A DNA stretch of 64,000 nt, taken from assembly GCF_032854445.1 (NCBI RefSeq), contig NC_088300.1, positions 79,275,084-79,339,083 of the forward strand. Reading direction: 5' to 3'. Both the position numbers and the translations under genes were made by a program. Positions 4,501 to 10,500 of the stretch are shown here, piece after piece. The notes beneath the pieces were generated by a model. That model ran no database searches and was not told where the DNA came from. It saw only the letters and a program-made list of their open reading frames with translations. The DNA is from Liolophura sinensis. Taxonomy: Eukaryota > Mollusca > Polyplacophora > Chitonida > Chitonidae. Within the stretch, counting starts at the first letter, position 1, and every line of letters begins with the position of its first letter.

Positions 4501-7500
4501 TCACACAGCCAACCACCTGACAGTGAACTACCATCCAGCAGTCAGTCTGAGGAATCGTCATTCAGTGACCAGTGCGGGGAGACTTCCTCAGCTAGAGGGA
4601 CTGCCCAGTGTAAGGATGCAGAGGTGAACCATAACAGTGTTGCCATGGAGACATTTGATGATGAAGAGGAGGAGGATTCGTGGGATAAACTGTTCACTGA
4701 TGATGGAGACTGCCTCGACCCCAAAATCATGGAAGAGGTAAGTTGGCGAGACACTGTGTATATAGTGCTGGTCTGGGCCACATCTACAAATTTCCCTGGG
4801 CTGAGGTGCTGTGTAGTCCTAGTAGCCATGGGAGGATATTGTATGGGGATGCATTACTGTGGGAGTTGTGGCGAGTCAACCATATTAGGATATTGTATGG
4901 AGATGCATTACTGTGGGAGTTGTGGCGAGTCAACCATGGGAGGATATTGTATGGGGATGCATTACTGTGGGAGTTGTGGTAAGTCAACCATGGGAGGATA
5001 TTGTATGGGGATGCATTACTGTGGGAGTTGTGGTAAGTCAACCATGGGAGGATATTGTATGGGGATGCATTACTGTGGGAGTTGTGGCGAGTCGACATGT
5101 ACATTGTGAGAGCTCCTTAAAAGAGGTCTATTTGTTTGTATACAGTGTTGCTTCATACATAGAGTAGATTTTGACATCCCAGAGTGAGATCTTCAGTACA
5201 TAAAGCATACATTGTATTAAATTAAAATAGATATTTCACCCAGTGAGGATTACAAACCACAGTTCAACCTTGCGATTTGTCATATTTGCCTATTGTCTCT
5301 ATCTGTTTTTAAGCTGCCTGTAATCATTTTTAACACCCTATCTTTTAACGTGGGCTATTTATTTAAAGAATACATGAAAAGCTTGTTGTATTTTAGTATT
5401 CAATTCAGGATATCTCCTAATACGTATGTTTTTTTGAAGTCCAAAAATCTTATTAGCTTTTTCTTAGTGCATGAAAATAGCTTTAAACTATAGGTTTCCT
5501 GTTGTGACGTCAGTGATGATAACTGTCAGAACAACTGTGGGGATAGAGCCTAGTTTGGAGGCAGTAGGCTGCTCGTGCATAAAAAGACATGAAACCATGC
5601 ACAGTCGTCATAGTGCAAGATATTGCAGTTATTGCACATTGACATTTGTTTTTTGTCTTGTAAGAAAATTAGATGGATTTACATGTATATTATATTTTTA
5701 AAAAGGAACAGATTGCATTTAACTTTCTTTTAACTTTATAAATAGCTGAGTGAAATACGACAGTCAGTTCTATTTGTTGTAGCTGACATCTGCTGTAGGC
5801 AGTGTCCAGGTGGAGAAGCCACAGGCACAGAATTACTACAAGTACCAGCCCAAAGAGCCAGATGTGGACCTGGAAGGTTTGTATACACGCTTTCTGTGTG
5901 GTGTTGTAGACGGTACTTGTAGTTGGTACTTGTACCAGCCTAAAGAGCCAGGTGTGGACCTGGAAGGTTTGTATACACGTTTTCTGTGTGGTGGTTGTAG
6001 TCGGTACTTGTAGTTGGTACTTGTACCAGCCCAAAGAGGCAGATGTGGACCTGGAAGGTTTGTATACACGCTTTCTGTGTGGTGGTTGTAGTTGGTACTT
6101 GTAGTTGGTACTTGTACCAGCCCAAAGAGCCAGATGTGGACCTGGAAGATTTGTATACATGTTTTCTCTTGTGGTGGTTGTAGTTGGTACTTGTACCAGC
6201 CAAAAGAGCCAGATGTGAACCTGGAAGGTTTGTATACATGTTTTCCCTTGTGGTGGTTGTAGTTGGTACTTGTACCAGCCCAAAGAGCCAGATGTGGACC
6301 TGGAAGGTTTGTATACATGTTTTCTCTTGTGGTAGTTGTAGTTGGTACTTGTACCAGCCCATAGAGCCAGATGTGGACCTGGAAGGTTTGTATACATGTT
6401 TTCTCTTGTGGTGGTTGTAGTTGGTACTTGTACCAGCCCAAAGAGCCAGATGTGGACCTGGAACGTTTGTATACATGTTTTCTCTTGTGGTAGTTGTAGT
6501 TGGTACTTGTACCAGCCCAAAGAGCCAGATGTGGACCTGGAAGGTTTGTATACATGTTTTTTCTTGTGGTGGTTGTAGTTGGTACTTTGTACCAGCCCAA
6601 AGAGCCAGATGTGGACCTGGAACGTTTGTATACATGTTTTCTCTAGTGGTAGTTGTAGTTGGTACTTGTACCAGCCCAAAGAGCCAGATGTGGACCTGGA
6701 AGGTTTGTATACATGTTTTCTCTTGTGGTAGTTTAGTTGGTACTTGTACCAGCCCAAAGAGCCAGATGTGGACTGGAAGGTTTGTATACATGTTTTCTCT
6801 AGTGGTAGTTGTAGTGGTACTTGTACCAGCCCAAAGAGCCAGATGTGGACCTGGAACGTTTGTATACATGTTTTCTCTTGTGGTAGTTGTAGTTGGTACT
6901 TGTACCAGCCCAAAGAGCAGATGTGGACCTGGAACGTTTTGTATACATGTTTTCTCTTGTGGTGGTTGTAGTTGGTACTTGTACCAGCCCAAAGAGCCAG
7001 ATGTGGACCTGGAAGGTTTGTATACATGTTTTCTCTTGTGGTGGTTGTAGTTGGTACTTGTACCAGCCCAAAGAGCCAGATGTGGACCTGGAAGGTTTGT
7101 ATACATGTTTTCTCTTGTGGTGGTTGTAGTTGGTACTTGTACCAGCCCAAAGAGCCAGATGTGGACCTGGAAGGTTTGTATACATGTTTTCTCTTGTGGT
7201 AGTTGTAGTTGGTACTTGTACCAGCCCAAAAGAGCCAGATGTGGACCTGGAAGGTTTGTATCCATGTTTTCTCTTGTGGTGGTTGTAGTTGGTACTTGTA
7301 CCAGCCCAAAGAGCCAGATGTGGACCTGGAAGGTTTGTATACATGTTTTCTCTTGTGGTGGTTGTAGTTGGTACTTGTACCAGCCCAAAGAGCCAGATGT
7401 GGACCTGGAAGGTTTGTATACACATTTTCTGTATGGTAGTTGTAGTTGGTACTTGTACCAGCCCAAAGAGCCAGATGTGGACCTGGAAGGTTTGTATACA

Positions 7501-10500
7501 TGTTTTCTCTTGTGGTGGTTGTAGTTGATACTTGTACCAGCCCAAAGAGCCAGATGTGGACCTGGAAGGTTTGTATACATGTTTTCTCTTGTGGTAGTTG
7601 TAGTTGGTACTTGTACCAGCCCAAAGAGCCAGATGTGGACCTGGAAGGTTTGTATACATGTTTTCTCTTGTGGTGGTTGTAGTTGATACTTGTACCAGCC
7701 CAAAGAGCCAGATGTGGACCTGGAAGGTTTGTATACATGTTTTCTCTTGTGGTACTTGTAGTTGGTACTTGTACCAGCCCAAAGAGGCAGATGTGGACCT
7801 GGAAGGTTTGTATACACGCTTTCTGTGTGGTGGTTGTAGTTGGTACTTGTAGTTGGTACTTGTACCAGCCCAAAGAGCCAGATGTGGACCTGGAAGATTT
7901 GTATACATGTTTTCTCTTGTGGTGGTTGTAGTTGGTACTTGTACCAGCCCAAAGAGCCAGATGTGGACCTGGAAGGTTTGTATACATGTTTTCTCTTGTG
8001 GTGGTTGTAGTTGGTACTTGTACCAGCCCAAAGAGCCAGATGTGGACCTGGAACGTTTGTATACATGTTTTCTCTTGTGGTAGTTGTAGTTGGTACTTGT
8101 ACCAGCCCAAAGAGCCAGATGTGGACCTGGAAGGTTTGTATACATGTTTTTTCTTGTGGTGGTTGTAGTTGGTACTTGTACCAGCCCAAAGAGCCAGATG
8201 TGGACCTGGAACGTTTGTATACATGTTTTCTCTAGTGGTAGTTGTAGTTGGTACTTGTACCAGCCCAAAGAGCCAGATGTGGACCTGGAAGGTTTGTATA
8301 CATGTTTTCTCTTGTGGTAGTTGTAGTTGGTACTTGTACCAGCCCAAAGAGCCAGATGTGGACCTGGAAGGTTTGTATACATGTTTTCTCTAGTGGTAGT
8401 TGTAGTTGGTACTTGTACCAGCCCAAAGAGCCAGATGTGGACCTGGAACGTTTGTATACATGTTTTCTCTTGTGGTAGTTGTAGTTGGTACTTGTACCAG
8501 CCCAAAGAGGCAGATGTGGACCTGGAACGTTTGTATACATGTTTTCTCTTGTGGTGGTTGTAGTTGGTACTTGTACCAGCCCAAAGAGCCAGATGTGGAC
8601 CTGGAAGGTTTGTATACATGTTTTCTCTTGTGGTGGTTGTAGTTGGTACTTGTACCAGCCCAAAGAGCCAGATGTGGACCTGGAAGGTTTGTATACATGT
8701 TTTCTCTTGTGGTGGTTGTAGTTGGTACTTGTACCAGCCCAAAGAGCCAGATGTGGACCTGGAAGGTTTGTATACATGTTTTCTCTTGTGGTAGTTGTAG
8801 TTGGTACTTGTACCAGCCCAAAGAGCCAGATGTGGACCTGGAAGGTTTGTATCCATGTTTTCTCTTGTGGTGGTTGTAGTTGGTACTTGTACCAGCCCAA
8901 AGAGCCAGATGTGGACCTGGAAGGTTTGTATACATGTTTTCTCTTGTGGTGGTTGTAGTTGGTACTTGTACCAGCCCAAAGAGCCAGATGTGGACCTGGA
9001 AGGTTTGTATACACATTTTCTGTATGGTAGTTGTAGTTGGTACTTGTACCAGCCCAAAGAGCCAGATGTGGACCTGGAAGGTTTGTATACATGTTTTCTC
9101 TTGTGGTGGTTGTAGTTGATACTTGTACCAGCCCAAAGAGCCAGATGTGGACCTGGAAGGTTTGTATACATGTTTTCTCTTGTGGTAGTTGTAGTTGGTA
9201 CTTGTACCAGCCCAAAGAGCCAGATGTGGACCTGGAAGGTTTGTATACATGTTTTCTCTTGTGGTGGTTGTAGTTGATACTTGTACCAGCCCAAAGAGCC
9301 AGATGTGGACCTGGAAGGTTTGTATACATGTTTTCTCTTGTGGTACTTGTAGTTGGTACTTGTACCAGCCCAAAGAGGCAGATGTGGACCTGGAAGGTTT
9401 GTATACACGCTTTCTGTGTGGTGGTTGTAGTTGGTACTTGTAGTTGGTACTTGTACCAGCCCAAAGAGCCAGATGTGGACCTGGAAGATTTGTATACATG
9501 TTTTCTCTTGTGGTGGTTGTAGTTGGTACTTGTACCAGCCCAAAGAGCCAGATGTGGACCTGGAAGGTTTGTATACATGTTTTCTCTTGTGGTGGTTGTA
9601 GCTGATACTTGTACCAGCCCAAAGAGCCAGATGTGGACCTGGAAGGTTTGTATACATGTTTTCTCTTGTGGTGGTTGTTGTTGGTAATTGTTCCAGCCCA
9701 AAGAGTTTGATGTGGACCTAGAAAGTTTAAAACATTCATTCATGAATAATAAAGCAGTCTATGCGATGGCCTGTTCAGTTCCCTGTCAACATTATCCCTG
9801 TCAACATTATCCCTGTCAACTCTTGGGTTATTAACAAGCTGATCACACCTAGTGTATACATGCACTTTGTTAGGTGAGAAAAGCTTATTGGATTTCAGTG
9901 ACTTTGATCTACTTTTGACAGGTCGCTGGGGCTGAAGTTAAATTATATGCACTTCTATGTATTATTGCATTATCTCCTAAAGGTTTTAAGACACAATCAA
10001 GTAATGCCACACTTGCACCCAAATAAGAAAAGAAACCCAAATGAATTTGGTCAGACTAATATATGTGCGTAAGAGTCCAGTATTAAGCTCAGCTCCATGT
10101 CCACATCACCCTTTTTGTTGCTTTGTTTGTTAGAGAAGTCATGTCATTGACTACATACATGCACATCTACACCTAAACAACTAAGTCTGCACACCTGAAC
10201 CTGCGCATGTGAGACAAATCAGGTACATGTAGAATGCATAAATTTGCAAATATTCTGATGACTGAACTAGTTTAAAAATGTGGATAGACTTTCATCAGAG
10301 TGATGTGCTTCACATTTTGCCTCACAACTTTTCAACGTCTGGTTATTTGGGTGATAATTGAATTATCTAAGTTTTACTAAGAGCAACATATCTCCATTTC
10401 AAAATGTTTAAATATGAGATGTACAAGGTGCTTGATGTGATCTTGTATTACATGTATATTTCATCAACTTAACAGTGAGGAGCATTTCATAAACTTACTG

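What the first reader, a model, noticed from the sequence alone, without database searches (positions are those of the whole stretch)
5842..9725. Minisatellite that amplified a coding exon end together with its 5' splice site about 49 times
Seen: the last 35 coding bases of the R3HCC1L exon at 5783-5876 and its GAAG|GTTTGT donor are repeated in almost every 79-bp unit. Each unit also carries a TTTTCTCTTGTGGTGGTTGTAG stretch usable as an acceptor. So the intron is a row of about 49 decoy micro-exons of 44 nt, each with a donor at least as good as the real one. Known: tandem competing donors and pseudo-exons can cause alternative or recursive splicing. Inference: the array could act as a splice-site sink, yield variable numbers of [15 protein letters not shown]-type insertions (44 nt shifts frame; three copies keep it), or be silent because of structure or exon definition. 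I do not know of a described case with this many captured donors.
Basis: partly seen in the sequence, partly recalled or inferred. Interest (0 to 1): 0.82.

Follow-up and report, generated by a model that had tools for sequence, protein, structure and literature searches.

The report
Chiton exon-edge minisatellite, a "mirage" array
In a chiton gene the end of an exon and its splice site have been copied about 48 times into the next intron; such exon-edge arrays were known from lancelets, and a sample of other genes here suggests they are common in this animal, which matters because splicing must pick the right copy among near-identical decoys.

Summary
The last 35 bp of the exon at 5783-5876, its donor and 44-56 bp of intron recur in tandem to 9728: 49 unit starts, 48 besides the true exon. 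44 of 48 copies keep GT, 36 share the donor 9-mer, none beats it. The assembly is that of the chiton Liolophura sinensis. The structure is the "mirage" described in lancelet genes, so the kind is known; my listed search rows showed none in molluscs. It is not isolated: 10 of 85 arrays in 34 myosin/kinesin loci (133 distinct exon matches) and 4 (6 with weak cases) of 80 further exon windows copy an exon edge with its splice site. That is about 1.8 times random seeding in the first sample (P 0.039), so such arrays are not visibly purged. Best explanation: tandem duplication strikes blindly; copies across an exon edge survive because the exon-proximal site stays in use and the rest leaves with the intron. 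No RNA was available. Micro-exons of 44 nt look unlikely; donor 2 would add 30 residues in frame. Copy number is uncertain: two ~1.6-kb blocks differ by two whole units and seven 1-nt indels, no substitution.

The parts
5783..5876 (+).
   Evidence: Open frame; acceptor 7.06 bits, donor 7.62 bits; joined exons match a PARN chain at E 0.0041 and Pfam models below their cut-offs
5877..5882 (+). Exon-proximal donor GTTTGT, inferred to be the one used
   Evidence: Contiguous with the coding exon; phase joins the exon at 10518
5842..9728 (+). Exon-edge minisatellite: 49 unit starts, mostly 79 bp
5967..5972 (+). Second donor; its use would extend the exon by 90 nt in frame without a stop
6026..7773 (+). 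Higher-order block A (22 units); the seven 1-nt length differences to block B lie between 6586 and 7228
7774..9364 (+). Higher-order block B (20 units), no substitution relative to block A
9365..9692 (+). Partial third block: 7 substitutions to block B and 9 to block A over 328 bp
9693..9728 (+). Diverged terminal unit; donor lost (AAAGTTTAA)
10518..10599 (+). Next coding exon, acceptor TTATCTTCAG
   Evidence: acceptor 8.33 bits; joins in frame

Best explanation
The array is a minisatellite seeded by a chance tandem duplication of a segment spanning the exon's 3' edge, then grown by slippage or unequal exchange, including block-wise duplication. The whole array lies in the intron. The donor contiguous with the exon (5877) is used in most transcripts and the array is spliced out with the intron. 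Shown: exon-edge copies, mostly intact donors, host frame, and recurrence in other genes. Inferred: the mutational mechanism, donor choice and near-neutrality. Such duplications are tolerated because the first donor, paired with the upstream acceptor by exon definition and transcribed first, keeps the reading frame while the copies become intron.
For: Copies carry exon sequence plus donor in tandem. A genome search with the first 258 bases found this place only; that search scores only its best candidates. The same structure occurs in 10 of 85 arrays in 34 myosin/kinesin loci and in 4 of 80 fresh exon windows, 6 with weak cases. Direction exon to array: copied chaperonin exon ends encode LVPGGGATEMALAQ and GGGAAEL, inside matches to the family profile; that these residues are widely conserved is recalled. 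In 7 of 10 testable donor arrays the second copy's site would give a frameshift or stop (in one, L020, that copy has also lost GT), so these genes should need the first donor. 10 arrays against 5.45 expected from random seeding argues against strong purging. Lancelet mirages with AG/GT were reported not to interfere with regular splicing.
Against: No RNA data were available, so donor choice is untested here. In R3HCC1L donor 2 is in frame and equal in strength; in two other arrays (L022, L043) the second donor is also in frame and open. The excess over random seeding (P 0.039) may mean that edges are preferred seeds rather than chance ones. In 4 of 11 measured arrays the true site is stronger than the median copy, which could mean selection against strong copies.
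Confidence: 0.75

Rival explanations
1. The array is used: donor 2 (or others) gives alternative isoforms, or the array acts as a U1/splice-site sink that regulates this gene.
For: 36 of 48 copies have a donor identical to the true one; array acceptors reach real acceptor strength; donor 2 adds 30 residues in frame; three included 44-nt units keep the frame.
Against: A stop at 6011-6013 closes the frame before donor 3. One or two included micro-exons lead to a stop. No YTNAY motif in 47 array acceptors, while 72 of 100 genuine acceptors and 54 of 98 control stretches have one; the 47 are copies of one sequence, so this is weak. Lancelet mirages were reported as not disturbing splicing.
Confidence: 0.12
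2. The array is real but its length is inflated by assembly: block A is an error-bearing second copy of block B. (Compatible with the best explanation; it concerns copy number.)
For: Seven 1-nt indels and no substitution in about 1.6 kb, the indels in units of block A within 643 bp; the assembly rests on 14x HiFi reads.
Against: Mean HiFi read 8,347 bp exceeds the 3.9-kb array, so single reads can span it; block A has two units that block B lacks.
Confidence: 0.25
3. Edges of exons are preferred seeds for tandem duplication, not just tolerated ones. (Compatible with the best explanation on splicing.)
For: 10 seen against 5.45 expected (P 0.039); 11 by rule against 5.85 (P 0.027).
Against: Small numbers, one-sided test, a simple seeding model, no correction for looking; the fresh windows, for which no null was computed, gave 4 to 6 of 80.
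Confidence: 0.3
4. The exon end was captured from a pre-existing minisatellite (array to exon).
For: Not excluded for R3HCC1L itself, since no related animal could be searched.
Against: In chaperonin, kinesin and myosin cases the copied exon segment lies in or beside a match to the family profile.
Confidence: 0.04

Closest known systems
Lancelet 'mirages' (Adh3, BflGb6, BflGb9, TnC, PGBD5)
   Different: Mollusc, not cephalochordate; 48 extra copies here against 6 and 3 repeat units in the two BflGb6 haplotypes (Adh3 copy numbers not seen). Here several gene families of one genome were sampled.
Human internal tandem repeats in genes of segmental duplications (PMC2812944)
   Same: Minisatellite expansion (about 30-bp units) that alters gene structure, sometimes at the exon-intron boundary (passages).
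   Different: There linked to new introns and to repeats kept in exons, about 4 repeats on average; here the array is inferred to be intronic.
[quoted passage not shown] ATP2A1; potato RdRp, PMC4974935)
   Same: Tandem duplication carrying AG/GT sites (passages).
   Different: There the duplication makes a new intron; here an existing intron is enlarged and no new intron is shown.

Membership tests
Mirage (exon-intron boundary minisatellite) | Tandem repeat unit contains the exon edge, the splice site and adjacent intron | tested here: met
   Units have up to 35 exon bases, the donor and intron
Mirage (exon-intron boundary minisatellite) | Array contiguous with the authentic exon | tested here: met
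   First unit is the exon end itself, 5842-5876
Mirage (exon-intron boundary minisatellite) | Many but not all copies keep AG/GT | tested here: met
   44 of 48 keep GT
Mirage (exon-intron boundary minisatellite) | Does not disturb normal splicing (RT-PCR) | not testable with these tools
   No RNA reads held; frame argument only
Mirage (exon-intron boundary minisatellite) | Length instability between haplotypes or tissues | not testable with these tools
   One haplotype held; the block duplication within it suggests turnover
Intron gain by tandem duplication | A new intron position relative to relatives | not tested
   No related animal genomes in the tools

The most novel reading that the evidence does not exclude
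In this chiton roughly 4-11% of conserved exons have an edge embedded in a minisatellite of splice-site copies (14 arrays per 213 exon matches), which would mean of the order of ten thousand such arrays genome-wide (rough extrapolation). Splice-site choice there must rest on position and exon definition rather than on local sequence, and the arrays form a large, fast-changing supply for exon extension, splice-site shift and intron gain.
Probability: 0.5. Interest if true: 0.72.

Novelty: new member of a known kind. Interest (0 to 1): 0.52.

Why it matters
Rows of near-identical donors or acceptors beside the real one are natural tests of how the spliceosome chooses among equal sites. If they are as common as the sample says, one RNA-seq mapping would measure donor choice over many independent arrays. 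It also extends a structure reported from lancelets to a mollusc, which hints at a general by-product of minisatellite-rich genomes rather than a lancelet oddity.

Tried and rejected
Flagged by the rule but rejected as exon-edge arrays on reading: L006 (array stops before the acceptor), L094 and L106 (profile match ran into intron) and the donor side of L052 (array starts about 8 nt into the intron). Counted apart as weak: L052 acceptor and L099 donor, with about 6 or fewer exon bases copied.

A slip found on rechecking: the scripts speak of 134 exon matches. One match was placed in two overlapping loci (L033, L034) and one typed match lay outside the fetched regions; 133 are distinct.

Considered: hidden structure as silencer; array fold z -0.98 with 37 of 200 shuffles as good, exon plus first units z -2.20 with 3 of 100 as good. 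Considered: selection weakening array donors; by eye the donor columns are not the most variable (position -1 varies in 7 of 48, another column in 19), and the median copy equals or beats the true site in 7 of 11 measured arrays. That walk stops below 60% identity, so it favours kept sites; 4 of 15 cases gave no copies (L020, L022, L008, L017). The splice-site matrix was trained on sites picked by frame and score, without RNA. By reading only, the 54-bp array 4826-5093 and the 30-bp array 10603-12081 of the same gene do not contain an exon edge. Literature queries of no use. An earthworm paper with intronic minisatellites (PMC12783039, passages) shows no exon-edge array in those passages.

Full report
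What is there. The exon at 5783-5876 is followed by a tandem array whose unit is the last 35 exon bases, the donor GTTTGT and in all 44-56 intron bases. An anchor scan gives 49 unit starts, 48 besides the exon itself; Tandem Repeats Finder agrees. The first three units are 90-91 bp, most others 79. Of 48 copies, 44 keep GT and 36 have the exact donor 9-mer AAGGTTTGT, 7.62 bits on a matrix trained on this genome's own exons; the donors picked for the sample have median 8.2. The variants are AAC|GT, AAG|AT, one shifted copy and the decayed last unit. A whole-genome DNA search with 5783-6040 found 22 matches, all in this array; it scores only its best candidates and skips very common words.

Which organism. 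The genome has 609,464,459 bases in 632 contigs. PMC11068029 reports 609.5 Mb in 632 scaffolds, with scaffolds 10, 11 and 12 of 28,395,274, 27,489,247 and 25,057,479 bases (passages). Contigs C2, C3 and C4 have exactly these lengths. The species was corrected to Liolophura sinensis (whole correction read). The mitochondrial reading frames under code 5, named by eye, are in an order that I recall as mollusc-like.

Trust in the assembly. Block A (6026-7773) and block B (7774-9364) differ by two whole units and seven 1-nt indels but no substitution; the seven all make units of block A depart from the usual length, within 643 bp. That pattern looks like read errors (inference). The array exists, but its copy number needs spanning reads; the published mean read of 8,347 bp at 14x should allow this.

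Is it unique? I took 34 loci holding 133 distinct of the 213 myosin and kinesin matches, picked from coordinates for having several matches within 10 kb, before any sequence was seen (229,003 letters, 491 of them twice). Nonredundant arrays number 85. A fixed rule flagged 11 of them; on reading, 10 copy an exon edge with its splice site: donors L020, L022, L024, L025, L031 (two) and L032; acceptors L008, L017 and L033. I then wrote down the rule and an expected 5-9% for chaperonin exons and fetched 80 fresh exon windows: 47 of 50 matches to PF00118 (left out: two matches over 900 bp and the neighbour of one) and 33 of the unused kinesin matches, the latter not part of the written prediction. 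The rule flagged 8 of 80 exons. On reading, 4 are clear (L043, L051, L054 donors; L086 acceptor), 2 weak (L052 acceptor, L099 donor) and 2 false. Chaperonins give 3 clear of 47, 4 with the weak case; kinesins 1 of 33, 2 with the weak case. Together 14 clear arrays per 213 exon matches (6.6%, interval 3.6-10.8%; 16 with the weak ones).

Chance. Seeding each array's unit at random in its own locus predicts 5.45 edge-crossing arrays against 10 seen (P 0.039; 5.46 before the recount), and 5.85 against 11 with the looser rule (P 0.027). So edges are not avoided; a mild excess is possible but not secure. Donor and acceptor sides are 10 to 4 (P 0.18).

Do the copies look usable? In the 11 of 15 cases where copies could be traced, 142 of 150 copies keep GT or AG (my sum of the rows). 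Using the second copy's site would shift the frame or add a stop in 7 of 10 testable genes, one of which has a second copy without GT; in R3HCC1L, L022 and L043 it would not. For R3HCC1L the second donor adds 30 residues; a stop at 6011-6013 closes the frame before the third donor at 6058. The 44-nt micro-exon is shorter than all 75 exons measured (shortest 81), and array acceptors lack YTNAY (0 of 47, against 72 of 100 genuine and 54 of 98 control stretches). Since the 47 are copies of one sequence, that is weak evidence. With the commonest micro-exon, one or two inclusions end in a stop and three keep the frame.

Known kind. [quoted passage not shown] the first mirage paper, PMC117041, is not held). 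RT-PCR on globins and Adh3 data suggested regular splicing. In humans, tandem repeats at exon-intron boundaries of genes in segmental duplications have been described (PMC2812944, passages). The rows listed by the searches showed me no such report for chitons or other molluscs by title and abstract; several listings were capped, and only the held library was searched. I saw passages, not the whole text, of PMC4974935 and PMC12783039.

Verdict. A true and striking array, but a member of a described kind. The better result is that the kind appears common in this chiton, which would make splice-site choice among equal copies testable on many loci. Function beyond being removed as intron is unproven.

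Noticed in passing
window 1-64000: About 40% of the window (25,392 bp, TRF score 100 or more) is tandem arrays, against 15.6% in the 229-kb gene sample (score 50 or more).
   Followed up: partly
window 10603-12081: A 30-bp x 49 array starts at position +4 of the next exon's donor without copying exon or GT.
   Followed up: partly
L024 6484-8660: A kinesin exon end appears twice with a 73-bp donor array between and a further array after: a larger duplication holding an exon and its array.
   Followed up: partly
L008 4120-5301 and L033 1646-3006: Acceptor arrays whose consensus unit reads AG|GT, the form of a recursive splice site (that link is recalled).
   Followed up: no
G000 C99: Seven COX1 matches about 15.5 kb apart: a concatemer of the mitochondrial genome, probably an assembly product; C632 is 15,209 bp with one match.
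   Followed up: no
window 3139-3338: A 200-base run of N shortly before a 72-bp array (3349-4058).
   Followed up: no
window 53325-54394 (-): Transposase-like reading frames, Tc1/mariner-like by look only.
   Followed up: no
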